Positions 1 through 64,000 of a stretch of DNA of 64,000 bases are shown in pieces (positions within the stretch are counted from its first letter, which is position 1; every line of letters begins with the position of its first letter). The DNA lies in assembly GCA_003725745.1 (NCBI GenBank), contig RHDP01000002.1, positions 55,032 to 119,031 of the forward strand, in the 5' to 3' direction. Below the pieces are notes generated by a model. The model ran no database searches, was not told where the DNA came from, and was given only the letters and a program-made list of their open reading frames with translations. Origin of the DNA: Streptomyces sp. I6 (GTDB taxonomy: Bacteria; Actinomycetota; Actinomycetes; Streptomycetales; Streptomycetaceae). The position numbers and the translations under genes were made by a program.

Positions 1-1
1 C

Positions 2-310
2 CGCTGGTCCCTGGCACAGGCCCCGTCGTCCGGCGCGCCCGCACTGATCCGCTACGAGCACTTCGGCGACCTCGCCGCGCTGCTGCCGACGGACTCCCCC
101 TTCGCGCTCGTCGCCGCGGACGAGGCCGACTTCACCGTCCTGCCCGGGACCGGCCGGGACACGGTGACGGTCAGCGGCGTGGTCCGGCAGGGGGTGCTCC
201 ACCTGGACTGGTGGTGCCCGCCCGGCCGGCGGGGCCGGCTGCTTGCCGCCGCGGTACCCGAGCGGGTGGCACGCCGGCTGACGGCGGCCACGGACTCCGC
301 GGCGCCATGA
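2..310 (+). CDS. C-terminal fragment of a free-standing condensation-like protein (cut by window edge)
   Basis: An open frame of 102 codons runs in from the left edge and ends in TGA at 308-310. Its last third has the pattern typical of the C-terminal beta-strand and helix of NRPS condensation domains: a hydrophobic strand ending LHLDWW, then a basic loop and a helix VPERVARRLTAA. The stop overlaps the ATG of the next gene by the ATGA arrangement, which implies translational coupling with the racemase gene. The body with the HHxxxDG motif lies outside the window, so the condensation assignment rests on the tail only. It could be another acyltransferase of the same fold. Confidence 0.5.
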   Translation, partial: RWSLAQAPSSGAPALIRYEHFGDLAALLPTDSPFALVAADEADFTVLPGTGRDTVTVSGVVRQGVLHLDWWCPPGRRGRLLAAAVPERVARRLTAATDSAAP

Positions 311-1110
311 TGCCCCCGGGGCCGGAGCCGGAACCGGAGCCGGGGCCCGACCCCGGACCGGATCCGGACCGGATGCCCGCCGGGACCCTCGGTGTGCTCG
401 GTGGGATGGGGCCCGCCGCGACGGCCGAGTTCCTGCGGCTGCTCGCCGCCCGGGTGCCGGCGGCGGAGGACCAGCACCATCCCCGCATCGTCATGCTGTC
501 GGACCCGTCGGTCCCCGACCGGTCCACCGCACTGCTGGAGGGCGGTGACGCCCCGCTGCCCGCCATCCGGGAGGGACTGGCGACCCTGGCCCGCTGGGGC
601 GCCGACCTGCTGGCCGTGCCGTGCAACACCGCGCACGTGTACATCGACCGGATCCGGGCGGAGCTGCCGGTCCCCGTCGTCCACATCGTCGACGCCACGC
701 TGCGGGCGGCGATGGCGCTCAGCCCGGAGGGCGGCTGGCTGGCCGCCACCGCCGGTACCGTCGCCAGCGGCCTCTACCAGCGGCGGGCCGCGGAGCTGGG
801 CTACCGGCTGGCCGTCCCCGGCCCGGCGGTCCGGGCGCGGATCCACCACGCGGCCGTCCTGGTCAAGGCGGGCCGTACGGACGAGGGCGGGCGGCTGCTC
901 GCGTCGGCCGTCCGCCCGCTGTGGCGTGAGGAGCGCCTGCCGGTGCTGACCGCGTGCACGGAACTTCCGCTGGCCTACGACGCGTCCGGGCTGCCCGCGG
1001 CGGCGGCGGTCTCCAGCCTGGACGCCCTCGCGACGGCCTGCGTGGACGCCCTCTACGCCGCGCCCGCCCGGCCCTCCTCCCGCGCGGCCGGACTGACGGC
1101 GGCGGCGTAG
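307..1110 (+). CDS. Aspartate/glutamate racemase family protein
   Basis: The 267-aa product has the PLP-independent Asp/Glu racemase layout. A GGMGP loop lies near the N-terminus, the first catalytic cysteine is in VPCNTAH, and the second is in LTACTEL. Both cysteines are present, so two-base racemisation is feasible. Amino acids 3-21 are an unusual Pro/Glu/Asp-rich leader before the fold begins at PAGTLGVLGG. A second possible ATG is at 373. The chosen ATG at 307 overlaps the upstream stop (ATGA) and has no clear ribosome site, as expected for a coupled cistron. Family members interconvert L- and D-aspartate or glutamate. Next to a condensation gene it might supply a D-amino acid, but that is inference. 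Confidence 0.8.
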   Translation: MMPPGPEPEPEPGPDPGPDPDRMPAGTLGVLGGMGPAATAEFLRLLAARVPAAEDQHHPRIVMLSDPSVPDRSTALLEGGDAPLPAIREGLATLARWGADLLAVPCNTAHVYIDRIRAELPVPVVHIVDATLRAAMALSPEGGWLAATAGTVASGLYQRRAAELGYRLAVPGPAVRARIHHAAVLVKAGRTDEGGRLLASAVRPLWREERLPVLTACTELPLAYDASGLPAAAAVSSLDALATACVDALYAAPARPSSRAAGLTAAA

Positions 1111-1181
1111 CGGGCGGGCGGGGCCGAGAACGGTTCGCCCTCGCGCCGGTGGGCGTCGTCCCGGGTGGAGGAGGGAGGTTG

Positions 1182-9283: not shown

Positions 9284-9315
9284 GCCGCACCCGGCCTGCG
9301 ACGAAGGGAGTGGGC

Positions 9316-12021
9316 GTGACCGAGACGGCCCAGGTGGTCCGTGCGTACGCCGTGACCGGCGGCCTCGACCTGCCGGCGCTGCGCGCCGCCTGGCACGAGG
9401 TCGCCGCGCGGTACCGCGTCCAGGACGGCGGTGCCGCCGGGCCGGGCGGGGACGCCCGCTGGATCACGGAGCTCGGCGACGTCACGGACCCCGGCCCCTG
9501 GCAGGCCGCCGAACGGCTGTGGGCCGACCCCTCGTCCCTCGCCTTCCCCGCCGGACACGGTCCGGCCGCGCACCTGACCGTCGCGCGGCCCGCCGATGGC
9601 GGACACCTCGTGCTGCTGGCCGCGAACCGGGCGTTCGCGGCCGGCGGCCACCGGCTCGCCTCCCTCGTCGACGGTCTCGGTGCCGCGTACACGGCCGCGG
9701 TCGGGACCGGGGACAACCCGGCCGTCACCTCGTTCGACTGGGGTACGGGGCAGGCCGGGGCGGTCGAGGCGCTGGCCGCCTCCGAGGGGGCCGCCCCTTC
9801 CGACGTCCTGCTGGCCGCGTACTGCTGCCTGACCGGGCGCCACCGCGACACGCAGCAGCCGGTCGTGGCCGTGCGTGGGACGGACGGCGGCCGGACGGCG
9901 GTCCGCGCCGACCTGTCCGGCATCGACGTGCCCTGCGGCGACGTGCCCTGTGACCCGTCCTTCCGTGAACTGGTACGGCAGATCTCCGTGGCGGCCCACG
10001 AGCCGGCCCCGGACGCTCCCGTGGACGCGGCGTTCATCGTGGAAGACCCGGCCGAGCCAGTGCTCCGGCTGCCCGGTGCACGGGTTCGGCGGCTGCGGGC
10101 CGGCGGGGTCCCGCCCGACACGGACCTCACCCTCACGGTGCACGACGGCGCGTACCGCCTCACGGGCTCGCTGGAGTACCGGACCGTTCCCTTCGACTCC
10201 GCGGCCGCCCCAGGTCTGCTGGGCCAGCTCCGCACCCTTCTGGACGCGGCGCTGACCGACCCCGGCACACCGGTGGCCGCCCTCCCTCTGGAGACGCCCG
10301 AGCAGCTCCGCTCGGCCGTGCGCGAGGCGGACCTGACCGGCACCGGCACGGTGCCGGTGCCTGACAGCGGGCCGCCCGTGCACGAGCGGGTGCGGGCTGC
10401 GGCCCTGGCCGCGCCCGGCGCGCCGGCCCTGGACGCCGCCCAGGGCACCGTCACCTACGCCGAGTTGACCGCCCGGGCCGCGGGGATCACGGAGGCGCTG
10501 CGCGCGCTCGGCGTCGGCGAGGGCGCGCCGGTGGCGTTGCGGCTGCCCAACGGCCCCGGCCAGGCCGCGGCGCTGCTCGGCGTCCTCGGCGCGGGCGCCC
10601 ACGCGGTGGGCCTCGCCGCCCGGGACTCGGGGGAACGCGTCAAGGCCGTCCTTGCCGGGCTGCGCCCGCACTGCCTGGTGGTGGCCGGGGAGCAGGCCAC
10701 CGCGCCGCTGCCGACCTGGTACCGCGTCGAACTGGGCGGCCACGTCCTCGACCTGGACGCCCTGCCCCTGCCGGACCTCGGTACCTCCCCCGGCTCCGCC
10801 GCCCCGCTCCCGAAGGATTTCCCGACCGGCCCGGCCTCCCCCGCCCGGGCCCTGCCCGGCGCGGGTGGCGCGACCGCGCCGCCCGCGCCGGGCCTCCACG
10901 GCGCCGCGTCCGACCGGTGGGCCTACATCGCCTACACGTCCGGCTCGACCGGCGTACCCAAGGGCATTCCGCAGACACACCGGACCTTCGCACAGTTCAT
11001 CGACTGGTTCACCGGCGCCTTCGGCATCGGGCCCGGGTCCCGCGTGGCGCAGTGGGCCCAGCCCGGCTACGACGCCGCGCTGGTCGAGCTGTTCGCGGCA
11101 CTGACCACGGGTGCCGCCCTCTGCCCGGTCCCGGACCGGCTCCGGGCCCACCCGGAGAAGCTGGCCGGCTGGCTGGAGTCGGAGAACATCACCCACTTCC
11201 AGACGGTGCCGAGCTTCGCCCGGGAACTGCTCGCCGCGCTCGGCACCACGGGCGTACGGCTCCCCTCGCTGAGCCACCTCCTGCTCGCGGGCGAGGCGCT
11301 GCACGGGGAACTCGCCGATGCCCTGCGCACCGCGCTGCCCGGCGCCCGGCTGGTCAACCTGTACGGAGCCACCGAGACCGTTCTGGCCACCTGGCACGTG
11401 GTGGGCGGGGCGGCCGGCGACGGCTTCGTCCCGGTCGGACGTCCGATCCCGGGCCGTCAGGTGCTCGTCCTCGACGAGCACGACCGGCCCTGCCCCACGG
11501 GTGTCACCGGCCGCATCGTGGTGTGCGGCCCGTATGTCACCCCCGGTTACGTCGGTGCCGAGCGGCCCGACGAGGCCTTCCGTCCCGTGGCCGGCCCCGC
11601 CGGGTCGGGTCTCGTCGGCGGAGCCTGCTACCGCGGCGGGGACCTGGGGCGCAGGCGGTGGGACGGCCTGCTGGAGTTCCGGGGCCGGGCGGACTCCCGG
11701 GTCAAGATCCGCGGTACCCGGCTGGAGCTGACCGACATCGAAGCCGCGCTCGGCTCCGACCCGTCGGTGGCCGCGTGCGCCGTGGTCGCCCGTACCGCCG
11801 CGGACGGGCTGGTGGAGCGGCTGGTGGCGTACGTGGTGCCGAGCGGCGGAGGGGACGGCGATCCGGCCGACGCCTCGGGCGCCTGGCGCACCACGTTGCG
11901 CGGCTGGTTCGGCAGGGCCCTGCCTCCGGTGTCGTTCGTGACGCTCGCGCGCCTGCCCCACAACACCGGCGGAAAGGTCGACCGCCGTGCGCTGGCGGAC
12001 CTCGCGCACCCCCCGCGCTGA
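9316..12021 (+). CDS. NRPS adenylation enzyme with degenerate condensation-like N-terminus (SgcC1-like, beta-tyrosine activation)
   Basis: The 901-aa product has two parts. Residues 1 to about 360 resemble a condensation domain that has lost the HHxxxDG motif. The rest is an adenylation domain with A3 (YIAYTSGSTGVPKG), A5 (LYGATETV), A7 (YRGGDLGRR), A8 (FRGRADSRVKIRGTRLEL) and A10 (LPHNTGGKVDRRAL). There is no thiolation domain. This is the architecture of SgcC1-type enzymes, which activate beta-tyrosine and load a free carrier protein. The carrier at 21047-21310 fits that role. GTG at 9316 is preferred over GTG 9310 because GAAGGGAG ends five bases upstream. The aminomutase gene follows directly. 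Substrate identity is inferred from context, not from a specificity code. Confidence 0.8.
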   Translation: MTETAQVVRAYAVTGGLDLPALRAAWHEVAARYRVQDGGAAGPGGDARWITELGDVTDPGPWQAAERLWADPSSLAFPAGHGPAAHLTVARPADGGHLVLLAANRAFAAGGHRLASLVDGLGAAYTAAVGTGDNPAVTSFDWGTGQAGAVEALAASEGAAPSDVLLAAYCCLTGRHRDTQQPVVAVRGTDGGRTAVRADLSGIDVPCGDVPCDPSFRELVRQISVAAHEPAPDAPVDAAFIVEDPAEPVLRLPGARVRRLRAGGVPPDTDLTLTVHDGAYRLTGSLEYRTVPFDSAAAPGLLGQLRTLLDAALTDPGTPVAALPLETPEQLRSAVREADLTGTGTVPVPDSGPPVHERVRAAALAAPGAPALDAAQGTVTYAELTARAAGITEALRALGVGEGAPVALRLPNGPGQAAALLGVLGAGAHAVGLAARDSGERVKAVLAGLRPHCLVVAGEQATAPLPTWYRVELGGHVLDLDALPLPDLGTSPGSAAPLPKDFPTGPASPARALPGAGGATAPPAPGLHGAASDRWAYIAYTSGSTGVPKGIPQTHRTFAQFIDWFTGAFGIGPGSRVAQWAQPGYDAALVELFAALTTGAALCPVPDRLRAHPEKLAGWLESENITHFQTVPSFARELLAALGTTGVRLPSLSHLLLAGEALHGELADALRTALPGARLVNLYGATETVLATWHVVGGAAGDGFVPVGRPIPGRQVLVLDEHDRPCPTGVTGRIVVCGPYVTPGYVGAERPDEAFRPVAGPAGSGLVGGACYRGGDLGRRRWDGLLEFRGRADSRVKIRGTRLELTDIEAALGSDPSVAACAVVARTAADGLVERLVAYVVPSGGGDGDPADASGAWRTTLRGWFGRALPPVSFVTLARLPHNTGGKVDRRALADLAHPPR

Positions 12022-12093
12022 GCGCCTTCCGGCGCCCGCCGTGCGCCGGCTTCCTACCTGTATACGTATCCAATCCATGATGGGGTGAATATC

Positions 12094-13719
12094 GTGACCA
12101 TGCTCGAAACCGGCTTCTCGGTCGACTCGGACGGGTCGAGCGTCAGCTTCGACGGCGAGAACCTTGACATCCCGGCGGTGCGCCGGGTCGCCGAGGACCT
12201 GGCACAGGTCTCCGTCGCTCCGGAGGCCCTGGCCAAGGCCGCGCGGAGCCGCGCCCAGTTCGAGAAGATCATCCATGACGGCGCCCCCGTCTACGGCGTC
12301 ACCACCGGTTACGGCGAGATGATCTACATGCTGGTCGACCCCTCCAAGGAGGTCGAACTCCAGACCAACCTGGTGCGCAGTCACAGCTCCGGCGTCGGCC
12401 CGCTCTTCGCCCAGGACGAGTCCCGCGCCGTTGTCGCCGCCCGCCTCAACGCCCTCTCCAAGGGCTACTCCGCGGTCCGGCCCGAGCTGCTGGAGCGCCT
12501 GGCCCTCTACCTGAACCGGGGCATCACCCCGGCCATCCCGGAGATCGGCTCGCTGGGCGCCAGCGGCGACCTGGCCCCGCTCTCGCACATCGCCAGCACC
12601 CTGATCGGCGAGGGGTACGTCCTCCAGGACGGCAAGCGGGTGCCGACCGGCCAGGTGCTGCGCGAGGAGGGTATCGAGCCGCTCCAGCTGCGCTTCAAGG
12701 AAGGCCTCGCACTCATCAACGGCACCTCGGCCATGACCGGCCTCGGCTCCCTGGTCGTGGGCCGCGCCCTGGACCAGGTGCGCCAGGCCGAGATCGGCAC
12801 CGCGCTCGTCCTGGAGGTGCTGCGCGGATCGACCAGCCCGTTCCAGGCCGAGGGCCACGACATCGCCCGCCCGCACCGGGGCCAGATCGACACCGCGGCC
12901 AACATGCGCGCGCTGCTGGCCGGCAGCGGTCTGGTCCTCGACCACGCCGAGCTGCGCCACCAGGCCGAGGAGCAGCGCGGCGGCGGCGACGTCTCACGCA
13001 CCGAGGTCTACCTGCAGAAGGCGTACACGCTGCGCGCCATCCCGCAGGTGGTCGGCGCCGTCCGCGACACGCTCTACCACGCCGCGGAGAAGCTGCAGAC
13101 CGAGCTGAACTCCTCCAACGACAACCCGCTGTTCTTCGACGGCAAGGAGGTCTTCCACGGCGCGAACTTCCACGGCCAGCCGATCGCCTTCGCGATGGAC
13201 TTCGTCGTCCTGGCCCTCACCCAGCTCGGTGTCTTCTCCGAGCGGCGCACCAACCGCCTGCTCAACCGTCACCTCAGCGACGGGCTGCCGGAGTTCCTCG
13301 TCGCCGGCGAGCCCGGCCTCAGCAGCGGTTTCGCCGGCGCCCAGTACCCGGCCACCGCCCTGGTCGCCGAGAACCGCACGATCGGCCCCGCCTCCACCCA
13401 GTCCGTCCCGTCCAACGGCGACAACCAGGACGTGGTCAGCATGGGCCTGATCGCCGCCCGCAACGCCCGCCGCGTGCTGTCCAACAACACCCGCATCCTC
13501 GCCGTCGAGTTCCTCGCCGCCGCCCAGGCCGTCGACCTCTCCGGCCGCCGCGACGGACTCAGCCCGACCGGCCGGGCGACCTACGACACGATCCGTTCGC
13601 TGGTGCCCACGCTCGACCGCGACCGCTACATGTCCGACGACATCGAACTGGTGGCCGCGGCCCTCTCCCGCGGCGAGTTCCTCGGGGCCGCCGAGCAGAC
13701 CGGCACAGTGCTGGCCTGA
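12094..13719 (+). CDS. MIO-dependent tyrosine 2,3-aminomutase (SgcC4-like)
   Basis: The 541-aa product belongs to the ammonia-lyase/aminomutase family. The Ala156-Ser157-Gly158 triad in GSLGASGDLAPL forms the MIO cofactor. Tyr67 in VYGVTTGYGEM is the catalytic base. The stretch GPASTQSVPSNGDNQDVVSM is the family signature. Length and long identical stretches match, from memory, the C-1027 enzyme SgcC4, which converts L-tyrosine to (S)-beta-tyrosine. Stereochemistry and acceptance of substituted tyrosine cannot be read from the sequence. The start is GTG at 12094 with GGGGTGA upstream; an in-frame GTG at 12085 and ATG at 12100 are alternatives. The gene lies between the adenylation and condensation genes and makes their building block. 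Confidence 0.92.
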   Translation: MTMLETGFSVDSDGSSVSFDGENLDIPAVRRVAEDLAQVSVAPEALAKAARSRAQFEKIIHDGAPVYGVTTGYGEMIYMLVDPSKEVELQTNLVRSHSSGVGPLFAQDESRAVVAARLNALSKGYSAVRPELLERLALYLNRGITPAIPEIGSLGASGDLAPLSHIASTLIGEGYVLQDGKRVPTGQVLREEGIEPLQLRFKEGLALINGTSAMTGLGSLVVGRALDQVRQAEIGTALVLEVLRGSTSPFQAEGHDIARPHRGQIDTAANMRALLAGSGLVLDHAELRHQAEEQRGGGDVSRTEVYLQKAYTLRAIPQVVGAVRDTLYHAAEKLQTELNSSNDNPLFFDGKEVFHGANFHGQPIAFAMDFVVLALTQLGVFSERRTNRLLNRHLSDGLPEFLVAGEPGLSSGFAGAQYPATALVAENRTIGPASTQSVPSNGDNQDVVSMGLIAARNARRVLSNNTRILAVEFLAAAQAVDLSGRRDGLSPTGRATYDTIRSLVPTLDRDRYMSDDIELVAAALSRGEFLGAAEQTGTVLA

Positions 13720-13816
13720 ACCCCGCGCTCCCTCGACCCGGTCGCTTCCGGCGGGGCCGCCCCGAGGCGCCCCGCCGCGAGTGACGCCCGACCCCCACAA
13801 GACCTGGGACGAACCC

Positions 13817-15223: not shown

Positions 15224-16810
<1,587 letters not shown>

Positions 16811-40075: not shown

Positions 40076-40165
40076 GGCAGAAGACCGCCCCTCTCGAATC
40101 CCTGGAATAGCCCGGCGAATCGAATCTAGCCAGGGGGCCGGGAGGGGCGTCTACTTCGTAAGTGC

Positions 40166-43185: not shown

Positions 43186-43366
43186 CCTGCCGTTATCCGG
43201 AACGTCTTGGGCAACTCCGCCTTGCCGGCCGGAGGAAGGGAGCGACAGTCTTGGAGCGAAGAGTGAACGTCAGTCCCACTCGGGACGCACCGGCGGTGCA
43301 CCGACGGGCCGAGGTCAGGACCCTCGCATGTCCGGTGGCCGAGAGCCCTCTTCGGGAGACGGTGTG

Positions 43367-46431: not shown

Positions 46432-47385
46432 ATGCTGACAACCACAGAGCCGCACACCGCGGCAAGACCGGCACTCACCACGACCGTCGCCAGGGAGTAC
46501 GTGCACCGGGCGGCTCTGTCGGAGGTCTTCCTGACCGACTGGAACAGGGCCGGGCACGACGCCTTCACCGTCAAAGCGCAGCTGCCCCGCTGCCACACCT
46601 TCTACGTTCCCGAGTACGGGATGTACGACCCGCTGCTGCTGTGCGAGACGATACGGCAGTCCAGCACCCTGCTGACGCATGTCGCTTACCAGGTTCCGTT
46701 CGGTCACCAACTGTCCTGGTCGCGTCTGCAGTTCGCCGTCAACCCGCAGGCCATGCGCATCGAAGACACCCCTGCGGACGTCGAACTGCACGTGACCTGT
46801 TCGGACATCCGCTACCACCGCTCGCTGCCGGTGACGATGTCGATGCACCTGGAGGCCGTCCGCAACGGCTCGCTGCTCGCCATGGCCAGCGTCCGCTTCG
46901 GCAGCCACTCACCTGCCGTGTACCAGCGACTGCGCCCGGGACGAGGCGACATCGACGAGATCTTCGCCAATGCCCCGAAACCTCCGGAGCCCGTACCGCG
47001 CAGTGCCGTCGGCCGGCTGCGGAAGCAGGACATCGTGCTCTCACCGGCCGCGGAGCCGCTGCGCTGGCAACTCCGCGTCGACACCAGCCATCCGGTCCTC
47101 TTCGACCACGCCCTCGACCACGTTCCGGGCATGCTGCTCCTGGAGTCCGTACGACAGGCGGGACAGGCCGTCCGGCCTTCGCAGGCCGGCGCCGCGATCC
47201 CCGTGTCCATGGACGTCTCGTTCAACCACTACGTCGAGTTCGACGAGCCGTGCTGGATCGAGGCCGAGGAGACGGACGCCCCCTCGCCCACGGGCGCGCG
47301 CCGGACGATCCGCGTCAACGCTCTCCAGAAGGGTTCTTTCGCGTTCAACGCGAGTGCAGAACTAGCGGAGATCGGCTCCTTCTGA
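46432..47385 (+). CDS. afsA: AfsA-family gamma-butyrolactone synthase
   Basis: The 317-aa protein has two tandem AfsA hotdog repeats. The first includes VHRAALSEVFLTDWNRAGHD and LLCETIRQSSTLLTHVAYQV; the second VDTSHPVLFDHALDHVPGML and LLESVRQAGQAVRPSQ. The paired E-S/T-x-RQ motifs are the family hallmark. AfsA condenses a beta-keto acyl chain with dihydroxyacetone phosphate, the first committed step to A-factor-type signals. With the receptor, SDR and HAD genes it makes a nearly complete signalling locus. ATG 46432 is preceded by GGGGAGAGG. Confidence 0.92.
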   Translation: MLTTTEPHTAARPALTTTVAREYVHRAALSEVFLTDWNRAGHDAFTVKAQLPRCHTFYVPEYGMYDPLLLCETIRQSSTLLTHVAYQVPFGHQLSWSRLQFAVNPQAMRIEDTPADVELHVTCSDIRYHRSLPVTMSMHLEAVRNGSLLAMASVRFGSHSPAVYQRLRPGRGDIDEIFANAPKPPEPVPRSAVGRLRKQDIVLSPAAEPLRWQLRVDTSHPVLFDHALDHVPGMLLLESVRQAGQAVRPSQAGAAIPVSMDVSFNHYVEFDEPCWIEAEETDAPSPTGARRTIRVNALQKGSFAFNASAELAEIGSF

Positions 47386-50691: not shown

Positions 50692-51831
50692 CTACCTCTC
50701 CTCCAGGAGGAGGTCGACCACCTGCTGCAGAAACTCCGCGCTGGTGGCGGCAGCCAGGTCAGCAACGAACGCCTCGGGGCCACCGAGCAGCTCCACGTAT
50801 CGCCCCACCATCCGGTGACGCTCTCGGTCGCTGACCTTCTCGAAGATGATGTCCATACTGGCGACGCCGTCAGCCCACGGCATCTTGACCTGACGTGGGC
50901 TGAGAGCCGATGCCGGACGTGGGTCGGGCACGGTGGCCACGGGCGGTGCGTGTCCCGGTGCCTCAGAGTCCTCGCCGGGAGACCTTATTACGTCGTAATG
51001 AGTCGGCTCAGCGGGCTTCTGCGCTGCGTCAGGACTCGGCCTGGGGACGGTTTCCGCAGCCGGTGAGCCGGTGCCGGTGTTCCGACGGGCGCTCGCCCCA
51101 GCGTGCTTGTCAGCCTTTTCCTGGGCACGCCTGTCCTTGAGGCGCTGTAGGTGTTCTTCCTGCTCCTCCGGATTCTTCCGGCCCACGAGGCGCAGCAGGT
51201 CCGCGCGCTCCTCCCCGGCCTCGAGCTTGTGCTTCAGCTCGGGAGTGAGGCTGAGCAGGGCGAGCCGCTGCGAGATCCAGCCCTGGGAACGGTGCAGACG
51301 AACGGCGAGCGCTTCCTGGGTGCCGTGCACCCCAAGCAGTTGCTGCAGGGCCTTGGCTTCATCGAGCGGGCTGAGGTCCTGCCGGTGGATGTTGGCGACG
51401 AGGGCGGACTCGAGGAGCTCGTCGGGGTTCTTGCCGAGGCCGTCATCGAGCATCACCTTGATGCTCTCCAAGGAGGCTTCTCGTGCTGCGGCAAGGCGGG
51501 AGTTTCCGTCGATCACGACGTACTTGGTGCCTGGCTCGAGTTCGCGTTCACGGGTCGGGTTGGCCTCGAGGTAGGTGAAGCGGGACATGATGGTGATGGC
51601 CTGCTTCTGCCCGTGGTCGCGGAGGCTGCCGGCGAGATCGGTCAGATCGCCGAGCTCGGTCCGAGGGTTGTCCGGGTTGAGGCTGATGGCGCGGAGAGGA
51701 AGGGTGACCGGTGGAGGTGCGCCTTCCGTGGGGGCGGCCGTAGCGGCGTTGATGGCCGCGCGCCGGGAGCTGATGGGTTGTGCGTGCTGGAAGGAGGCGC
51801 CCGCTCCGAGCTTGGCGGCCTTGCTGCTCAC
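50692..51831 (-). CDS. parB: ParB-type partition protein
   Basis: The 379-aa protein has the ParB order: NPDNPRTELGDLTDLAGSLR, YVVIDGNSRLAAAREA (the CTP/ParB-nuclease-fold box), ALVANIHRQDLSPLDEAKAL and the HTH GTQEALAVRLHRSQGWISQR followed by KorB-like helices. The C-terminal region ends in helices that would dimerise. The start GTG 51831 overlaps the parA stop by GTGA. Two parS-like repeats lie close, and one (50987) is inside this gene. The N-terminal segment of about 60 residues should contact ParA. Confidence 0.9.
   Translation of the reverse strand: MSSKAAKLGAGASFQHAQPISSRRAAINAATAAPTEGAPPPVTLPLRAISLNPDNPRTELGDLTDLAGSLRDHGQKQAITIMSRFTYLEANPTRERELEPGTKYVVIDGNSRLAAAREASLESIKVMLDDGLGKNPDELLESALVANIHRQDLSPLDEAKALQQLLGVHGTQEALAVRLHRSQGWISQRLALLSLTPELKHKLEAGEERADLLRLVGRKNPEEQEEHLQRLKDRRAQEKADKHAGASARRNTGTGSPAAETVPRPSPDAAQKPAEPTHYDVIRSPGEDSEAPGHAPPVATVPDPRPASALSPRQVKMPWADGVASMDIIFEKVSDRERHRMVGRYVELLGGPEAFVADLAAATSAEFLQQVVDLLLEER
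50987..50999. promoter_or_regulatory. Candidate parS site 2 (inside parB)
   Basis: ATTACGTCGTAAT within the parB coding sequence, identical to site 1. On the minus strand it is read in the Pro/Ala-rich linker of ParB, where the amino acids are little constrained. Confidence 0.65.
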
Positions 51832-53065
51832 GAGATCTCCCGAGCGAGCGCGCGGAGTGCTACGGCCTGATCGCATCGTGGGGCGTAGGCGAGCAGGGGC
51901 TGCTTCACGCGGACGGCTTCCTTCTGCTCCTTCAGGTCGCCGATGACGCCGACGACCCGAGGGTCCTTTATGGCCATCCAGGCTTCGAGGGAGGAGGTGG
52001 CGATGTAGCCGCGGCGGGCGTCGTAGTGGTTGACGACGATGCCGAGGTATTCGAGTTCGAGTCCCATGTCCCCGCGTAGGTCCTCGATCTGAGAGGTGAG
52101 CAGGGCGTAGGCGTCGGCGCTGCTGTCTTCGGCCTGGACCACGACGAGGACGCCGGAGTTGCCGGGGTCTTCGTCGGGGCGGCGGCGCCCATAGAAGGCG
52201 GCGGCGTCCATGCTGAGGCCGAGACTGGGTGGGCAGTCGACGAGGATTACGTCGTAATAGTGCTCGACGGGGGACAGGGCGCGTTCAAGGGCTGCCTCAC
52301 GGGCGCGGACGCCGGAGAGTTTCACATCCAGCAGGAACGCGTCGGTGCAGGCTGGCAGCAGGTGGAGACGGCCGCCGAAGCGAGGAGCGTCGACTTCGAC
52401 GATGAGGTCGCGAAGATCTCCCTTGGGTTCACCTGCCATGTGCTTGGTGAGACTGTCGCCGTCGAGTTGGAGCGGATCGTGGCCGGTCTGCTTCGTCAGA
52501 TGGCCCTGGGGATCGAAGTCGACCAGCAGCACCCGGAGTCCCGGCCCGGGCAGGTCCTCGTAGTCGAGGGGCGAACGGGGCTGATCCTCGTTGAGGAGGG
52601 CGGCGAAGTGCTTGGAGATGCGGACCGGGTGGAGCAGGTCGGCCCCTTCGGCCAGGGCCTGGCCGGCTCCGGAGGTGACCGCGGTCTTACCGACGCCTCC
52701 CTTTTGGTTGCAGACGATGATGCGCCGGACGACCGCAGGGCGCTGCACGTTCGGAGGCGGGTTCTTGTCGAGCCACACCCGCACGGACTGGGACAAGCCC
52801 TGGACGAGGGAGACACCGCGAGCTTCGCAGTCTCCCTTGAAGGCCTCCCACTGGCCCGGGGGAGCCAGGTGGAGAACGACTTGGCGCCGGCGGTGTCGAT
52901 GGGGGACCGGTTCGCACCCAGCCCGCGCCAGGCGGTAATGCCCGCCTCGACCGCATGCTGGATGTCGATGCCGTGCTGTGCTGTGCGGATCTTCAGATCC
53001 TGCTGCAGCCCGGCTGGCAGCTTGGAGACGACCTTCTCCCGGTCGCTGGATGAGGACGAAGTCAT
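51828..53065 (-). CDS. parA: ParA-type partition ATPase with N-terminal DNA-binding-like extension; one frameshift
   Basis: The corrected product is about 412 aa. The N-terminal 90 residues (DREKVVSKLPAGLQQDLKIR, GIDIQHAVEAGITAWRGL) form an extension seen in plasmid ParA proteins. The P-loop is NQKGGVGKTAV at about residues 120-130, followed by LLVDFDPQGHLTK (Walker A') and VILVDCPPSLGLSMDAA (Walker B). The frame breaks in a five-base run at 52858-52862; one base joins STWLPPG to QWEAFKGDCEARGVSLVQ. ATG 53065. With ParB it should segregate the replicon. The upstream inverted repeat 53075-53119 is a likely autoregulatory site. Confidence 0.9.
52246..52258. promoter_or_regulatory. Candidate parS site 3 (inside parA)
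   Basis: ATTACGTCGTAAT within parA, in the strand VEHYYDVILVDCPP. Here the amino acids Y-Y-D-V are part of Walker B, so the site is embedded in constrained coding sequence. Confidence 0.6.
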
Positions 53066-53166: not shown

Positions 53167-53179
53167 ATTACGCCGTAAT
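53167..53179. promoter_or_regulatory. Candidate parS site 4
   Basis: ATTACGCCGTAAT, with the same arms as the other sites and a different central base. It is 49 bases from site 5. Confidence 0.65.
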
Positions 53180-53215: not shown

Positions 53216-53228
53216 ATTACGACGTAAT
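53216..53228. promoter_or_regulatory. Candidate parS site 5
   Basis: ATTACGACGTAAT, the reverse complement of site 1. Confidence 0.65.
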
Positions 53229-53492: not shown

Positions 53493-55710
53493 GTGCCGAG
53501 CGATGAGGACGCGCTGTTCGGTGCGGTCGACGCCCTGCTGGAGGAGGTGGCTTCCAGGGAGCCTCTGCCCGCCCCGGCAGAGCGGAAGCGGCTTCGCGAG
53601 GCCGCCGGTCTCAGCCAGGAGCAGGTGGCCGGTGTCCTGCAGGTCCGCCGTGAGGCGGTCAGCGGCTGGGAGGCCGGCCGCACGGAGCCCAGGGCGCCCA
53701 AGCGCGCAGCCTACGCCCGACTGCTGGAGGGGCTCGCGGCCCGCTACCCGGCTCCGGGAGCGGAGCCGGCGGCCCAGGACGTTGCTGTCCCCGGTCCTGG
53801 CGGCACCGAGCCGCCGCGGGCGCCTGCTGCCGCGCCCCCGCCGCCGGACGCCGCCCGCTCCGCGGCCGTTCCCTCACCGTCCCGCCCCGCGGGCAGCACC
53901 GCGCCCGCCCGGTCAGCAGCCCCACGCCGCACCACCGGGGTGGAGACGAGCACGAAGGGTGCGTCGACCACGGAGGCGCCCGACGCGCGTTTTGCGCACG
54001 GCCCGCTGGGGGTGCTCGACGGAGACGGTTCGGTGTACTGCCTGGGTGGGCTTGTGCTGGACTGCCCGGCCGGGACCGTCGTCGAGGTCGTGGAATGGGT
54101 CCTGGGCGAGGCGAAGCTCGGGGGGCTCGGCTGCATCGCGCGGGCAGGGACTCCGACCCGCTCATCGTGGTCACCGCCGCCGCGGCCGTACGACTCGGGC
54201 TGCCAGCGGAGCTTGAGGACCGGCGGAGCCTGCGGCTGCCACAGAGCCACGCGGTGGTCAAGCAGATCTCCAAGGCGGGGTGGAAGCTCACCAAGCGCGG
54301 GTTCGGCCCGTGGGCTCGGGTCTACCGGCCCGCTGACGGCGACCGGCGGCAGTGCGTGCAGTTCGCCGTCCTGCCGTGGGACGCGCTCGACACACGCTCC
54401 TGGGGCGACACCGCCCGGCTGCCCGCCCCGGACGTCGCCGCCGTCCTCGGCACCTACGCCTCCCGCGTCATCACTCCTCGGGGATCGACGGCCGTGTGCG
54501 GGCTGGAGCTGATGACCGCGCTGCGGCCGCCGACCCGCGCCGTACGCGACGAGACCTCGGGGACGTGGGTGCCGGGCCCGGTGCCCGGCTCCCTGTACGA
54601 GGCCGTGGATCCGGCGCCACCGGAGGCGCCGGCAGAGCATCCGATCGTCGCCGGCCTGTACCCGCGCCATCACCAGCGCACTCCGGATCAGGTGCTCGAC
54701 GAGGAGGCCTTCGACTGGATCCGCGAGCCGGAGCTGCTCACCGGGGCCGAGTGCGCGCGCCGGTTCGCGGTGGGCATCGACGTGAACACCGCCTTCCTCG
54801 CCGCCGCCAACCGCCTCGTTGTGGGCCTTTCGGCCCGGTCCACGTGAAGAAGCCCGCCTTCGACAAAAAGGTCCCCGGGTCCTGGCTGGTCGATCTGTCC
54901 GGTATCGAACTCGACCCCCGGCTGCCCAACCCCTTCACTCCCCACGGGGAACGGCCCGGCGGCCCGGCCTGGTACGCGACGCCCACCGTCGCGTACGCGG
55001 CCGAGCTCGTCGCGACCTACGAACTGCCGGTGCCGATCGAACCCGTCGAGGCATGGCTGCGGCCGGAGTCGGGCCCGTACCTCGACCCCTGGTACAAGCG
55101 GTTGAGCGAGGCGTACAGGGCGACGATGGCCGACCTCGGTGTGATGGCCGGGATGGGCGACGTCGAGTTCCTGACCGCGATGGCGACGCACCGGCAGGCC
55201 GACCCCGGCACGGCAGCGGTGCTGTCCGCCATCAAGGCGACGGTCAAGGGCGGCATCGGCAAGCTGCGTGAGCGGCCACAGGGTGCGGGATACCGGGCCG
55301 GAGAGCGCTGGCCCGCCCTGGAACGCCCTACCTGGCGCCCCGACATCCGGGCCGCCGTAATCTCCACCGCACGCGTCAACATGCACCGCAAGATCCTCAA
55401 GACAGCGCTCGCCACACAGCACGCACCCGCTCCCACCGGGCATCTCGCCCTCGGGGACGACGCACTCGTTCCGGTCGCCCTGCTGTCGGACTGCGCCGTG
55501 TACCTGTCCGACGGCCCTTCGCCGCCGGACGTCCTGCCGTACACGCCGGACGGCAAGCCCGCGCCCGGCACCTTCCGCCTCGGGGTCAGTCCCGGCATGG
55601 TCAAGCACGAGGGCACCCAGGACCTGATGTGGGCCGTCCGGATGCTCGAAGCGGGACACAACCCCGCCCAGCACATCAAGGGCACCGACGCCGCCCACGA
55701 GGGGGAGTAG
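53493..55710 (+). CDS. tap: Telomere-associated protein Tap (two frameshifts)
   Basis: The corrected product is about 739 aa. The N-terminal HTH RLREAAGLSQEQVAGVLQVR and REAVSGWEAGRTEPRAPKRA is followed by a long Pro/Ala linker and a large conserved domain: AVVKQISKAGWKLTKRGFGP, DWIREPELLTGAECARRFAV, GSWLVDLSGIELDPRLP, and IRAAVISTARVNMHRKI. This matches Tap, which binds Streptomyces telomere 3' overhangs and recruits Tpg. Frames break in G/C runs at 54120-54125 and 54834-54836; one base each repairs them. GTG 53493 has GGAGG seven bases upstream. tpg follows 6 bases after the stop. Confidence 0.9.
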
Positions 55711-55716: not shown

Positions 55717-56271
55717 ATGGGCATGTTCGACGACAGCCTCGACCAAGCCGTGGCGAACAAGACCACGAGGCCGGTACCGAAGAGCGCACCGGCACAGATG
55801 CGGTACCTGGTCAAGCAGCTCAAGGGGACCCGGCCGGTGGCCGAACTACTGGGCATCTCCCAGCGCACCGTCGAGCGCTATGTGAAGAACCAGATCAAGC
55901 GGCCCCGCCCGGAACTCGCCGCCCGCCTCGCCCAGGAGGTACGCCGACGCTGGCAGCCCCGGGTACGGGAGCGGGCCAGGAAGCAGGCCGCCACGTCGAC
56001 GGGCATCGTGATCGAGACCCGCGCCAGGTTCGGGTTCACCGCTGCCCCTGGCAGCACCGACGACGCCCGCATCCGGCTCATCACGCACCATCTGCCACCC
56101 GCGTACGCCGCGCGCCTCTTCGACGCCCAGACCCAGGGGGCCACCGACCGGGAGCTGAGGGCCATCGCGGCGGAGGGCCTCCAGGAGGAGTACTTCAAGG
56201 ACCGCGGCCGCCGGGCCGCCGGCCTGTCCGTGGAGTTCACCGACATCGATTACGTCGAGTTCGACCTCTGA
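55717..56271 (+). CDS. tpg: Telomere terminal protein Tpg
   Basis: The 184-aa protein is a clear Tpg: MGMFDDSLDQAVANKTTRPV, then VPKSAPAQMRYLVKQLKGTR, the HTH VAELLGISQRTVERYVKNQI, and the conserved block TSTGIVIETRARFGFTAAPG followed by HLPPAYAARLFDAQ. Tpg is covalently attached to the 5' ends of linear Streptomyces replicons and primes end-patching. The size matches the family. A tap-tpg operon normally lies on a linear chromosome or linear plasmid, so this replicon is probably linear. Confidence 0.95.
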   Translation: MGMFDDSLDQAVANKTTRPVPKSAPAQMRYLVKQLKGTRPVAELLGISQRTVERYVKNQIKRPRPELAARLAQEVRRRWQPRVRERARKQAATSTGIVIETRARFGFTAAPGSTDDARIRLITHHLPPAYAARLFDAQTQGATDRELRAIAAEGLQEEYFKDRGRRAAGLSVEFTDIDYVEFDL

Positions 56272-60585: not shown

Positions 60586-60676
60586 TCCACTGCACGGCAC
60601 GGCGCACCGAACGCCGACCGCGTCCTCACCTCGGTGGCGAGCCTCCCCAGCTGGAACTCCTCTTCGCCCCGCCCCA

Positions 60677-61077: not shown

Positions 61078-62592
61078 ACGCTGGCTTGCCTCTCCTCGTC
61101 AGTGAGCACTCCGATGCCGGGGTAGTACTTGCGCTGGTTCGACAGGATCATTTCCTTCGGAGAGGCGAGCCCGACCAGTTCCCGTGCGCGCGCGGCGAAC
61201 GCGCGTGAGGACATGATGGGTGCTCCTTCGTTCTGACACCATGCCCGGTACGCGGCGTACAAGCCGGTCTGCTCCGCTCGCAGTTCGCCGCCGATGACAC
61301 AGCACTCCTCGAAGAATCGGCCCGTGTGGTCCTCGGTCTCCGCGTAAGCGGTTGTCGCGATACGCACACGTTCGGGGCCCGTCAGGTCCTTCTCCCTCCG
61401 ACGTAACGGCGGGCCCCATCGATGAGCCAGCCCAGAATGCCGGGTCCTTCCTCCGTCACGAGAATGTCCGCCAGGTTGTCGATCTTGCGGTCGTCGGAGA
61501 CCACTCGCTCGAACGGGATCAGCCGCATTCGGCGCCAGAAAGCAAAGCCTCCGGTGCCGACCTCTGGCCGGTGGTTGCCGAGCAGCCACAGCTTGTGGGT
61601 GGGCTGGAAACTGAAGAAGTCCTGTCTCATCCGGCGGGCCTTGATGCGGTCGCCGCCGGTCAGGAGTTTGACTCGTGCTTCGTCGAACTTGTCTCCGTGC
61701 TTGACTTCCGAGCAGACGATCACACGTCGGCCGTGAAGTTCGGCCAGGTCCGTCGGGTGACCTTCGTAGGGGCGGGCCATGAGGAAGCCGGGCGGGGCCG
61801 CGTCCGCGTAGTCTCCGAGCAGTTTCATCAGCACGTCGAGCAGCACGCTCTTGCCGTTCTTGCCGGCCCCGAAGAGGAAGGGCAGGACCTGTCCTCCGAC
61901 GTCGCCGGTGACCGAGTAGCCGAGAAGCAGCTGCAGGAAACCGATCATCTCCCTGCCCTCGGTGTCGCCCCCGAAGGTGTCGGTGAGGAATCGGTCCCAG
62001 CGGGGGTGGGCCCTGCTGGGGCCCACGGTGGTGGAGCGTGAATGGAAGTCCTTGTTCGGGTCCGGAGTCTTCACCAGCCCGGTCCGGAGGTCGACGATGC
62101 CCTCAGGTGTGCACAGAGCATACGGATCGGCGTCCAGCAGGGCCGCGTTGAGGACCATCCCCGGGGCCGCCTTGGCCTGGGTGAGCATCGCGTTCACGCC
62201 CGAGGTGGACAGCGCTCGCCGTCGGTGCTGGTGGAGGGCTTGCGCGGTGAACAACCCTCGCGGGTCGCTGCTGGCGATGTTCTCGGCAAGGTCACCAGCA
62301 GCCCATACGACCGTGTCGTCTTCATCGATCTGCCATCGGGTGGTGTCCCACCGGTACCACCCGATGCCCGGGACGTGCCGGTAGTCATTGGCGTACAGCT
62401 TCACGAACAGCTTCGCGTTGCCGCGGTCCGTCAGGGTGTCGGGCAGCAGACCGTACTGTGTCGCCCCTCCGGCGGCCATGGGGGCTCACCGCCCTGGGCC
62501 GGGACGGGAAGTGCACCCTGAATACGGATCTGGGCGGCAACGGCGGCGGCATCGAAGTCGAACAGGACATCGTCATTGCCGGTAGAGGTCAT
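61074..62592 (-). CDS. P4/D5-type plasmid primase-helicase (two frameshifts)
   Basis: The corrected product is about 506 aa. After an N-terminal segment the D5_N domain and a superfamily 3 helicase follow: LLGYSVTGDVGGQVLPFLFG with the Walker A GAGKNGKSVLLDVLMKLLGD, and HKLWLLGNHRPEVGTGGFAF ending in an arginine-rich sensor segment. The C-terminus DHTGRFFEECCVIGGELRAE fits the DUF5906-like end. Frames break at 62480-62484 (start region) and 61394-61396; each needs one base. The ATG overlaps the prim-pol stop (ATGA) and the next gene overlaps its stop, giving a tightly packed replication operon. Confidence 0.85.
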
Positions 62593-63737
62593 CGGCAGCT
62601 CCCTGGATGCAAGGGGCGCTTGAGGCCGGCGGCCATACCGCTACGGATGATCTGCTCTGCCCGACGCTCTTGACCAGGGCGGGCTGAATGTGCGGTCTCG
62701 ACCAGAGCCCGCTCGGCATCCTCCTGGACGAGACGGCCTGCTGCTACGAGCCCGCCGAGCGTGTAGGCCGCCCGGTTGAGGGCGTCCGTGAACCCAGCTC
62801 CCTCGGCGACCTGACCACACGCCTGAACAGGGGCCAAGACAGCGGCGAGTACGTGGCCCCCGTACCACGGCCGCCACCAGCCGCCAGTACCGCCTGCTGG
62901 GCTCGGGGCGGGACTGACCGGGAGCGGGGATGTGGGGCCCGGGGAGGTGCCCGTGCGCTCGAGCTCCTGGGCAAGCCAGCTGGGAAGCACTGCCGGCTGG
63001 CGGACTTCCCGACAGGCACGTACGTTCCCGCGCTGGTCGTCGTGCCGGGCGCCACGATGTAGCCACCGTGCGCCCGGACGTCGACCTGCCAAGCGAGGGC
63101 GCGGCTTCCGCTGGAGCGCTGGAGCACTGCCAGCGACGGTTGTCTCCTGCCCTGTACCAGACGTGAAGCCCACCGGAAGGGGTCCTGACACGCAGTGTGC
63201 CCTCGTCGTCCGCGGGGCTGGGAGCTCCCCGCAGGGCCGCCAGAACGGCGATGGTGTGGAATCCGTTGGCGAGACCGGTGAGGTCCACGTTCTCGGAGAT
63301 GGAATGCCGGGAAGAATGCGACTCCGATCCGGGGGCTCAGCCTGATGAGCGTCGATGTCGATGACGACCAGCCCTGCGGGGCCGCAGGCCACGCCGACTC
63401 CGAAAAGAGGGTTCGCCGTCCACCATCGGTTGATGCGTCGCTGGTCGAGAGTGGCCGCGTGGAAACCATGACACCAGCGGCCGGAGGGCAGGCACGCACA
63501 GCCCGCGGCGACATGGCCGGGACGCCTGCAGTCGTCACAGTTCGCAGCTGGCGTCTTGCGACCGTGAGCGAGGGGATGCACCGGCCAGCCTCGACGGGCG
63601 CACCACTGCGCCACGGTCAGTGCCGCACGAGCGATCGAGGCCTCTGAGACAGGCTTTCGTGAGTCGCTGAGTGAAAACCCCAGCTCAGCAGGCATTTGCT
63701 CCCCTATCAGCGACCGAAGCGACTCAACGACGGACAC
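62589..63737 (-). CDS. Bifunctional DNA primase/polymerase (prim-pol), about three frameshifts
   Basis: The corrected product is about 383 aa. The prim-pol N-domain is recognised by ALTVAQWCARRGWPVHPLAH, CDDCRRPGHVAAGCACLPSG, WWTANPLFGVGVACGPAGL and the catalytic acidic strand VVIDIDAH, then by the typical ALAWQVDVRAHGGYIVAPGT. The C-terminal helical part is FTDALNRAAYTLGGLVAAGR. Frames shift near 63299, 63155 and 63011, each by one missing base. The start is GTG 63737 or ATG 63695 (GGGGAG upstream). Prim-pol plus D5 helicase is a common plasmid replication pair. Confidence 0.78.
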   Translation of the reverse strand: MSVVESLRSLIGEQMPAELGFSLSDSRKPVSEASIARAALTVAQWCARRGWPVHPLAHGRKTPAANCDDCRRPGHVAAGCACLPSGRWCHGFHAATLDQRRINRWWTANPLFGVGVACGPAGLVVIDIDAHQAEPPDRSRILPGIPSPRTWTSPVSPTDSTPSPFWRPCGELPAPRTTRAHCVSGPLPVGFTSGTGQETTVAGSAPALQRKPRPRLAGRRPGARWLHRGARHDDQRGNVRACREVRQPAVLPSWLAQELERTGTSPGPTSPLPVSPAPSPAGGTGGWWRPWYGGHVLAAVLAPVQACGQVAEGAGFTDALNRAAYTLGGLVAAGRLVQEDAERALVETAHSARPGQERRAEQIIRSGMAAGLKRPLHPGSCR

Positions 63738-63938
63738 ACCTTAGCGAACAGGTGCTCCAGAGAGGTGCAGCGCGGGGAGACAACCCCCGATCGTGTCGAT
63801 GGTTGACCGGATCGAGCATGTCTCAGCGACCCAAGACTTCGGGCAGCGACTCGGTGGGAACAGTCGCTGCGCCCCATCGCAGGCAGAACTCACAGGTCGC
63901 ATAGGCTGTGACGCAGCAAACAGCGACTGAAGCGACTC
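63661..63938. repeat. Iteron-like AGCGACTC repeats upstream of the replication operon
   Basis: AGCGACTC or its complement occurs at 63661-63668, 63718-63725, 63845-63852 and 63931-63938. A longer unit, CAGCGACYGAAGCGACTCAA, occurs at 63708-63727 and 63921-63940 with one mismatch, and CAGCGAC occurs twice more near 63824 and 63844. The stretch 63738-64000 has no gene and is AT-richer toward the right edge (TATATATGA near 63950). Confidence 0.6.
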
Positions 63939-64000
63939 AAGTCTTCTATATATGACGCACACGCGCGCACAGGAGTAGCTCATATATCCATCGCTTCAGT

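What the first reader, a model, noticed from the sequence alone, without database searches (positions are those of the whole stretch)
1..64000. Enediyne cluster joined to a tap-tpg/parAB linear-replicon backbone
A near-complete enediyne core with beta-tyrosine genes lies in the same 64 kb as tap, tpg, parA, parB, a prim-pol/D5 helicase pair and iterons. This is the inventory of a giant linear plasmid. The parS-like repeats differ from the chromosomal GTTTCACGTGAAAC site, which favours a plasmid over a chromosome arm. If so, the whole warhead pathway with its own quorum switch is transferable.
Basis: partly seen in the sequence, partly recalled or inferred. Interest (0 to 1): 0.8.

Follow-up and report, generated by a model that had tools for sequence, protein, structure and literature searches.

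The report
Enediyne plasmid with its own centromere
The window is the end of a separate plasmid-sized DNA molecule of a Streptomyces that carries a C-1027-like antibiotic pathway together with its own telomere and partition genes, a known kind of plasmid; its short centromere-like sites belong to a family whose letters change in step with the protein expected to bind them.

Summary
The window is positions 55,032-119,031 of a 119,031-bp contig (C2), separate from a 6.94-Mb contig. It carries a C-1027-like enediyne core, beta-tyrosine genes, an AfsA/ScbR pair, ParA, ParB, Tap, Tpg, a TtrA-like helicase, D5 and Prim-Pol genes. The plasmid reading is well supported. All 16 chromosomal-type parS sites lie on the big contig. 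A different palindrome, ATTACGNCGTAAT, occurs five times in the 7-Mb genome, all at parAB on C2. A complete linear plasmid (NBC_01216) is collinear with C2, and the sister plasmid in S. pacificus ends in a telomere. C2's own ends are not telomeres, so its linearity is inferred. The kind is known: C-1027's own cluster is on linear plasmid SGLP1. 'Transferable' is not shown: C2 has no FtsK/TraB match, and cluster identity is about the same as gyrB identity. The one fresh result concerns centromeres: 27 of 29 ParB loci have palindromes xTyACGNCGTy'Ax' (1-15) within 5 kb, in five letter classes that match five ParB helix types, often inside parB itself. Several C2 frames are split, most likely by assembly error. 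The only tap-tpg pair found in the assembly is on C2.

The parts
9310..12021 (+). AMP-binding (adenylation) protein of the beta-tyrosine branch
   Evidence: Pfam AMP-binding 224 bits; 47% to SGLP1 AMP-binding gene
12085..13719 (+). tyrosine 2,3-aminomutase (beta-tyrosine)
   Evidence: Lyase_aromatic 563 bits; 78% to SGLP1 cmdF-annotated gene
13781..15157 (+). free-standing condensation enzyme
   Evidence: Condensation 211 bits; 51% to SGLP1
15224..16810 (-). HpaB-type 3-hydroxylase of the tyrosine branch
   Evidence: HpaB_N/HpaB; 77% to SGLP1
18277..18708 (+). SgcJ/EcaC family protein
   Evidence: 58% to SGLP1 SgcJ
21047..21310 (-). free-standing peptidyl carrier protein
   Evidence: 45% to SGLP1 PCP; 83% to NBC_01216
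23253..24920 (-). GMC oxidoreductase (E9-like)
   Evidence: 85% to SGLP1
25782..26888 (+). StrR-like pathway regulator, NOT a partition ParB (annotated ParB in NBC_01216)
   Evidence: 56% to SGLP1 'streptomycin biosynthesis operon regulator'; no ParB family hit at E<=0.001
27812..29161 (-). cytochrome P450 (E7-like)
   Evidence: 73% to SGLP1
29158..29703 (-). SgcE6-like flavin reductase
   Evidence: 64% to SGLP1 SgcE6
29700..30158 (-). enediyne thioesterase (TEBC/E10)
   Evidence: 80% to SGLP1
30162..36046 (-). enediyne polyketide synthase PKSE; open frame 30162-35981, first ~50 residues in another frame
   Evidence: 70% to SGLP1 PKSE; 89% to NBC_01216
36043..37179 (-). UNBU/E5 membrane protein
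   Evidence: 78% to SGLP1; no Pfam hit
37182..39032 (-). UNBV/E4 protein
   Evidence: FG-GAP and UnbV_ASPIC; 66% to SGLP1
39089..41143 (-). two DUF1702 (UNBL-type) proteins
   Evidence: DUF1702 396 bits for 39089-40012; 66% to SGLP1 for 40166-41143
41767..42972 (-). IS701-family transposase between cluster and backbone
   Evidence: NF033540 332 bits; SGLP1 has one in the same place
43364..44005 (+). second ScbR-type TetR regulator (just under its family cut-off)
   Evidence: NF041196 140 of 150 bits
45701..46318 (-). ScbR-type TetR regulator
   Evidence: TetR_N 58 bits; 72% to NBC_01216 ScbR
46432..47385 (+). AfsA/ScbA gamma-butyrolactone synthase homologue
   Evidence: AfsA 152 bits
50653..50665 (.). 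parS-like palindrome ATTACGTCGTAAT downstream of parB
50692..51831 (-). ParB, helix type RSQGWISQRLALL
   Evidence: TIGR00180 73.8 bits
50987..50999 (.). parS-like palindrome inside parB (peptide HYDVI)
51828..53044 (-). ParA; N-terminal ~60 residues in another frame
   Evidence: AAA_31 80.5 bits; 73-76% to NBC_01216
52246..52258 (.). parS-like palindrome inside parA
53167..53179 (.). parS-like palindrome upstream of parA
53216..53228 (.). parS-like palindrome upstream of parA
53514..55710 (+). Tap (telomere-associated protein), in three frame pieces
   Evidence: NF047542, pieces below whole-protein cut-off
55717..56271 (+). Tpg (terminal protein), the only one found in the assembly
   Evidence: NF047541 304 bits
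58124..60585 (+). TtrA-like helicase with four helicase-associated repeats, in two frames (name TtrA recalled)
   Evidence: HA 163 bits
61382..62479 (-). D5-type helicase / P4-family primase
   Evidence: D5_N 128 bits; 77% to SGLP1
62589..63737 (-). bifunctional primase/polymerase (Prim-Pol)
   Evidence: Prim-Pol 68 bits
63660..64000 (.). origin-like region: short repeats and AT-rich tail; contig ends here
   Evidence: 73 bp at 85% to an internal part of an S. goshikiensis contig

Best explanation
C2 is an incompletely assembled linear plasmid of the Streptomyces tap-tpg/Prim-Pol family that carries a C-1027-like, nine-membered-type enediyne cluster. Shown here: it is a contig apart from the chromosome, the gene inventory, a private parS-like palindrome set, collinearity with a complete linear plasmid, and a sister plasmid with a telomere. 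Inferred: replication starts at the Prim-Pol/D5 origin region; Tpg and Tap patch and cap the ends; ParB loads at the ATTACGNCGTAAT sites around and inside parAB and, with ParA, segregates the plasmid without interfering with the chromosomal ParABS; AfsA/ScbR proteins gate the pathway. The palindromes belong to a plasmid centromere family xTyACGNCGTy'Ax' whose letters at x and y go with the ParB recognition helix. Plasmids with an enediyne-type PKSE gene occur in all five letter classes, so the cargo and the partition module have been separable in evolution.
For: Separate contig; all 16 chromosomal-type parS (13 exact, 3 with one mismatch) on C1, none on C2. ATTACGNCGTAAT: 5 of 5 in the genome at C2 parAB (0.01 expected in the window). 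NBC_01216 plasmid, recorded as linear, collinear over C2 10-102 kb, at about 89-94% in 24-97 kb. S. pacificus carries the orthologous plasmid, 85-97% identical where C2 matches in the stretches compared (two 20-kb ends of a 66.9-kb contig and a whole 10.9-kb contig), and its tpg/TtrA contig ends exactly in the complement of CCCGCGGAGCGGGT with hairpins before it; C-1027's SGLP1 begins with the same 14 bases. SGLP1 has the same gene set. 17 of the 18 PKSE-bearing plasmid records that I opened (of 49) are recorded as linear. Centromere code: 27 of 29 ParB loci have 1-15 sites within 5 kb, of a single class each, five classes to five helix types; in seven replicons held whole there are 63 such palindromes, 57 of them within 5 kb of ParB, against 1-6 in five Markov samples. 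No tRNA or Rfam family on C2.
Against: C2 has no terminal inverted repeat and none of the long telomere words tested. S. pacificus has no D5/Prim-Pol beside its TtrA except a 116-bp stub, so the two plasmids differ at that end. Tap, ParA, the TtrA-like gene and PKSE are split across frames in C2. Patches of C2's left 6 kb (54-302 bp) are 85-96% identical to pieces of the right end of C1, as an arm-plasmid exchange would leave. One related enediyne plasmid (S. parvus) is recorded as circular. Two of 29 ParB loci, one of them on a PKSE-bearing plasmid (NBC_00846) and the other the second par locus of another (NBC_00887), have no such sites, and one S. anthocyanicus locus has a single site within 5 kb. 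The ParB class-letter match is partly clade inheritance, not 27 independent events.
Confidence: 0.85

Rival explanations
1. C2 is a circular plasmid whose contig was cut open arbitrarily.
For: No terminal inverted repeat or long telomere word on C2; S. parvus enediyne plasmid is recorded as circular.
Against: The left end cuts a DUF2267 gene at profile position 83 of 122, and joining the two ends gives a stop one codon past the junction; no overlap of the ends; tap-tpg present; the sister plasmid ends in a telomere.
Confidence: 0.08
2. C2 is a piece of a chromosome arm that was not joined to C1.
For: Patches of C2's left 6 kb are 85-96% like C1's right end; the long telomere words tested are absent from C1's outer 5 kb too.
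Against: Private parS set, plasmid Prim-Pol/D5 origin and ParAB on C2; collinear with a complete separate plasmid.
Confidence: 0.04
3. The 13-bp palindromes are operators for autoregulation of parAB, not centromeres.
For: Two lie just upstream of parA; no binding was measured here.
Against: Many sites lie inside or downstream of parB, up to 12 tandem copies; SCP1 ParB1 and ParB2 bind 13-bp and 19-bp inverted repeats around their operons and spread ~15-20 kb (PMC13245405, section read).
Confidence: 0.07
4. The split frames are real decay, so Tap and the warhead pathway are dead in this strain.
For: 14 of 73 C2 genes are split against NBC_01216.
Against: Chromosomal gyrA, an essential gene, is split in the same way; genome completeness is 87% for two contigs; S. 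pacificus reads Tap, ParA and PKSE each in one frame (only these three were tested).
Confidence: 0.1

Closest known systems
Streptomyces globisporus C-1027 plasmid SGLP1 (NZ_CP013739.1, linear, 167,754 bp)
   Same: Enediyne core, beta-tyrosine genes, transposase, D5/Prim-Pol, Tpg, Tap, ParB, ParA on one linear plasmid; the same ATTACG parS class
   Different: PKSE 70% identical; no homologue on C2 at E<=1e-10 for SGLP1's dTDP-glucose dehydratase, RmlC-like and glycosyltransferase-like genes
Streptomyces sp. NBC_01216 plasmid unnamed3 (NZ_CP108680.1, linear, 107,176 bp)
   Same: Collinear over ~92 kb, ~90% in the cluster; both ends carry CATCGCTGCGCGATG palindromes
   Different: Other parS/ParB class (ATCACG, 15 sites, 12 tandem inside parB); tap-tpg inverted relative to C2 and only 46-64% identical in protein; no D5/Prim-Pol in its (incomplete) gene table
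Streptomyces pacificus CWH03 contigs (NZ_BLLG01000025, 66.9 kb, and a 10.9-kb contig)
   Same: Orthologous plasmid: PKSE 94% nt, parAB 89%, same parS class, sole Tpg found in that genome on it
   Different: Draft; no D5/Prim-Pol match beyond a 116-bp stub; tap and tpg on different contigs
SCP1 parABS1/parABS2 (PMC13245405)
   Same: Type-I HTH-ParB systems on a linear Streptomyces plasmid with short inverted-repeat parS; two parS said to differ at a single position and by 1 bp in length, without cross-binding
   Different: Only two specificities described there; the site letters are not in the text held, so identity with the classes here is not verified
SCP2 ParT-parS (PMC12260392)
   Same: parS inside the coding sequence of the ParB-like gene
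   Different: 18-bp site, CTP-independent protein; circular plasmid (recalled)

Membership tests
Streptomyces tap-tpg linear plasmid | replicon separate from the chromosome | tested here: met
   own 119,031-bp contig; chromosomal parS and a chromosomal parAB on C1
Streptomyces tap-tpg linear plasmid | Tpg terminal protein gene | tested here: met
   NF047541 304 bits, cut-off 90
Streptomyces tap-tpg linear plasmid | Tap gene beside tpg | tested here: inconclusive
   matches Tap in pieces lying in three frames, each below the 600-bit cut-off; one frame in S. pacificus
Streptomyces tap-tpg linear plasmid | telomere palindromes / terminal inverted repeats | tested here: inconclusive
   none at C2's ends, but the ends lie in a gene and an origin-like region; present in S. 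pacificus and NBC_01216
Streptomyces tap-tpg linear plasmid | protein covalently bound at the 5' ends | not testable with these tools
   needs a gel with and without proteinase
C-1027-type nine-membered enediyne cluster | five-gene cassette PKSE, TEBC, UNBL, UNBV, UNBU (names recalled) | tested here: met
   homologues at 65-80% to SGLP1; PKSE frame split
C-1027-type nine-membered enediyne cluster | beta-tyrosine branch (aminomutase, adenylation, PCP, hydroxylase, condensation) | tested here: met
   5 of 5 found, 45-78% to SGLP1
C-1027-type nine-membered enediyne cluster | deoxysugar genes as in C-1027 | tested here: not met
   no C2 hit for the dTDP-glucose dehydratase, RmlC-like and glycosyltransferase-like genes; so C-1027-like, not C-1027
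C-1027-type nine-membered enediyne cluster | apoprotein gene | not tested
   no apoprotein query was run
type-I HTH-ParB ParABS | parA-parB operon with an HTH ParB | tested here: met
type-I HTH-ParB ParABS | repeated palindromic sites next to parAB, private to the replicon | tested here: met
type-I HTH-ParB ParABS | ParB binds the sites and is a CTPase | not testable with these tools
   needs binding and CTPase assays
self-transmissible Streptomyces plasmid | TraB/FtsK-type transfer gene | tested here: not met
   11 PF01580 matches in the genome, 0 on C2; C2 is incomplete, so a gene in the missing part is possible

The most novel reading that the evidence does not exclude
Linear plasmids of Streptomyces and Pseudonocardia share one centromere design, a 13-bp palindrome xTyACGNCGTy'Ax', in which the letters at two half-site positions set partition specificity and are read by the ParB recognition helix (five classes found in the loci sampled: ATTACG, ATCACG, ATAACG, TTAACG, CTAACG). 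The sites are often written inside parB itself, in places as tandem repeats, and are read in two different frames, so selection acts on the DNA rather than the peptide. Plasmids with enediyne-type PKSE genes occur in all five classes, and C2's nearest complete plasmid relative carries the same cluster with another class, so cargo and centromere have been swapped.
Probability: 0.75. Interest if true: 0.6.

Novelty: new member of a known kind. Interest (0 to 1): 0.45.

Why it matters
The headline, an enediyne pathway on a linear plasmid, repeats the C-1027 case in another species and adds to 49 PLSDB records with a PKSE relative, 46 of them Streptomyces. What could matter more is the centromere code. 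It would let anyone read the partition class of an actinomycete linear plasmid from sequence, predict which plasmids can share a cell, and study how ParB changes specificity using natural series that differ at one or two bases.

Tried and rejected
Chromosome-arm reading: rejected on contig structure, private parS and collinearity with a complete plasmid. Circular reading: the left end cuts a DUF2267 gene (profile 1-83 of 122), the end-join gives a stop one codon past the junction, and there is no overlap; kept as a rival. 'ParB' inside the cluster: rejected, it is StrR-like. Terminal inverted repeat in C2, and between the outer 40 kb of the two C1 ends: none worth the name. Recent horizontal transfer: gyrB nt identity / PKSE nt identity gave 97/94.3 (S. 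pacificus), 84/86.1, 86/86.3, 88/84.5, 86/86.2, 86/87.0, 88/85.9, 82/81.6; no genome has a cluster much closer than its gyrB (largest excess about 2 points), so no support. Ten genomes were asked for: S. griseoflavus was not held and NK15101 gave no full gyrB; the host of NBC_01216's plasmid was not measured. Sole tap-tpg on the plasmid as a chromosome dependency: noted but not pushed. In a genus draw 63 of 295 genomes have no Tpg match at all, and some list a single match on contig 2 of 2 (G083, G180, G074; contig sizes not told); other terminal-protein systems (GtpA/GtpB, Tac/Tpc; PMC7205883 passages) were not searched. ScbR operator: simple palindrome scan, nothing in the AfsA-ScbR intergenic region. 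SCP1 itself was not found in the collection under two accessions, so its parS letters could not be compared. S. clavuligerus pCLA1 has 7 sites, but their places were cut from the listing and its ParB was not examined. Of the 49 PKSE records (two are 40%-identity relatives in Sinorhizobium and Gloeothece, one is an 11.9-Mb Nonomuraea record) I opened 18. Literature: parS with linear plasmids, parS with tandem repeats and single nucleotide (no paper), SLP2 parS, recognition helix; none of the listings shows a multi-class code, but only titles, abstract starts and the named passages and sections were seen.
Full report
Where the window lies. The window is G000:C2:55032-119031; the genome has two contigs, C1 of 6,935,567 bp and C2 of 119,031 bp, and the window's right edge is the end of C2. 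C2 has no tRNA and no Rfam family at gathering threshold.

Backbone. Tpg at 55717-56271 passes the NCBIfam telomere_Tpg cut-off (304 bits, cut-off 90); the frames before it match telomere_Tap in pieces, each below that family's 600-bit cut-off. ParB at 50692-51831 passes TIGR00180; ParA, D5_N, Prim-Pol and a helicase with four helicase-associated repeats (TtrA-like; name recalled) follow from Pfam. The same set, with the same enediyne core, is on SGLP1, the linear plasmid of the C-1027 producer: of 46 SGLP1 genes that I picked from 71 annotated on the two stretches fetched, 32 have homologues on C2 and 14 do not. A paper on S. globisporus TFH56 places the lidamycin (C-1027) cluster on linear plasmids there and in C-1027 (PMC6553541, passages seen). 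In PLSDB, 49 records encode a PKSE relative at E<=1e-100, 47 over at least 80% of the query. Of 18 such records that I opened, 17 are recorded as linear and one, S. parvus, as circular.

Plasmid or chromosome. All 16 GTTTCACGTGAAAC-type sites (13 exact, 3 with one mismatch) are on C1, none on C2, and C1 carries a ParB/ParA locus near them. ATTACGNCGTAAT occurs five times in the genome, all within 2.6 kb at parAB on C2. NBC_01216's linear plasmid is collinear with C2 over about 92 kb: about 89-94% nt in C2 24-97 kb and 77-86% in the flanks; its tap-tpg lie in the opposite sense.

Ends. C2 has no terminal inverted repeat and none of the long telomere words tested at its ends. Its left end cuts a DUF2267 gene at profile position 83 of 122, and joining the ends gives a stop one codon past the junction. 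Its right end lies in an origin-like stretch, part of which (73 bp at 85%) is also found ~29 kb inside an S. goshikiensis contig. In S. pacificus CWH03 the orthologous plasmid is on two contigs: a 66.9-kb one with cluster, parAB and tap, and a 10.9-kb one with tpg and the TtrA-like gene that ends exactly in the reverse complement of CCCGCGGAGCGGGT, with hairpins of 3-nt loops before it. The same 14 bases also occur inside contigs of that genome (four more places) and twice inside C1, so it is the place at the very end and the hairpins that count. Linearity of C2 is therefore an inference from relatives.

Broken frames. Of 79 NBC_01216 proteins, 73 have a match on C2, and 14 of the 73 are split over frames, among them Tap, ParA, the TtrA-like helicase and PKSE. 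Chromosomal gyrA is split too, completeness is 87.4%, and S. pacificus reads Tap, ParA and PKSE in one frame each. Assembly error is the likeliest cause.

Only tap-tpg pair. Tpg and Tap are found once in the assembly, on C2 (one 27-bit partial Tap hit on C1). S. pacificus too has one Tpg match, on the plasmid contig. In a draw of 295 genomes of the genus, 232 have a Tpg match and 214 pass the cut-off. Chromosomes may use another terminal-protein system (GtpA/GtpB, Tac/Tpc; PMC7205883, passages seen), which I did not search for.

Transfer. No FtsK/SpoIIIE-type match is on C2 (0 of 11). Where both could be measured (8 of the 10 genomes asked for), PKSE and gyrB nt identities are close to each other: gyrB 97 and PKSE 94.3 for S. 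pacificus, 82-88 and 81.6-87.0 for the rest. That gives no sign of recent spread.

The centromere family. I first tabulated 16 ParB loci: 11 of 11 with ATTACG sites have the helix RSQGW[IV]SQRLALL, and 5 of 5 with ATCACG sites have a helix ending ISSKLS. I then looked at further loci. Three had one of those helices and carried the matching letters: Pseudonocardia p1, S. pacificus, S. atratus. Eight had new helices and new letters, constant within a helix type: ATAACG in three, TTAACG in three, CTAACG in two. In all, 27 of 29 loci have 1-15 sites of one class within 5 kb and none mixes classes (13 ATTACG, 6 ATCACG, 3 ATAACG, 3 TTAACG, 2 CTAACG); one S. anthocyanicus locus has only a single site within 5 kb, with three more of its class further off. 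The two loci without sites are NBC_00846 (30% identity to the query) and the second par locus of NBC_00887. One record, an S. anthocyanicus plasmid, has two par loci of different class, as described for SCP1. In 23 of the 27, at least one site lies inside parB; the reading frame is one in 19 and another in 4. NBC_01216 has 12 such sites in tandem 39-bp units inside parB. A tree puts the ATAACG proteins among the ATCACG proteins (support 0.96 for a group of both, 0.61 inside it), so at least one switch within a clade is likely, but most of the agreement is by descent. Seven replicons held whole contain 63 such palindromes, 57 within 5 kb of ParB, against 1-6 in five Markov samples.

What is known of it. 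McPhillips et al. 2026 (PMC13245405; abstract, sections 30, 31 and 35 and passages read) show by ChIP-seq and binding that SCP1 ParB1 and ParB2 use 13-bp and 19-bp (15-bp core) inverted repeats, said to differ at a single position and by 1 bp in length, and that they do not cross-react. The letters are not in the text held. A 2025 paper on SCP2 (PMC12260392, passages) finds parS inside the gene of its ParB-like protein. I found no paper with a multi-class code, and the library holds only open-licence papers.

Verdict. The centromere family is the part worth a bench test.

Noticed in passing
G000:C1:3044231-3044407 (L012:9231-9407): Four chromosomal-type parS (1 exact, 3 one-mismatch) within 177 bp, ~287 kb from the nearest site of the main cluster, starting within 30 bp of a phage-type integrase gene in a run with FtsK/TraB, DUF2637 and RepSA genes: looks like a pSAM2-type integrative element with a host-type parS array; no tRNA in the 20 kb.
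   Followed up: partly
C2 1-6,000 and the right end of C1 (L007, L008): Patches of 54-302 bp at 85-96% identity, partly in matching order, as if plasmid and chromosome arm had exchanged ends.
   Followed up: partly
L153 (S. pacificus 10.9-kb contig) and L154 (start of its 66.9-kb contig): tap and tpg, adjacent on C2, lie on different contigs in S. pacificus, both contigs starting TCGGCCG: perhaps an insertion between them.
   Followed up: no
window 44059-44846, 26928-27697: SDR gene of the butyrolactone group and AraC-type regulator are each split over two frames relative to NBC_01216.
   Followed up: no
C2 29,309-32,657 (outside the window): Tandem pair of MFS transporter genes, 89% identical in DNA over 1.4 kb, also paired in NBC_01216.
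   Followed up: no
L001:12964-13743: Part of an S-adenosylmethionine synthetase gene on the plasmid's left arm.
   Followed up: no
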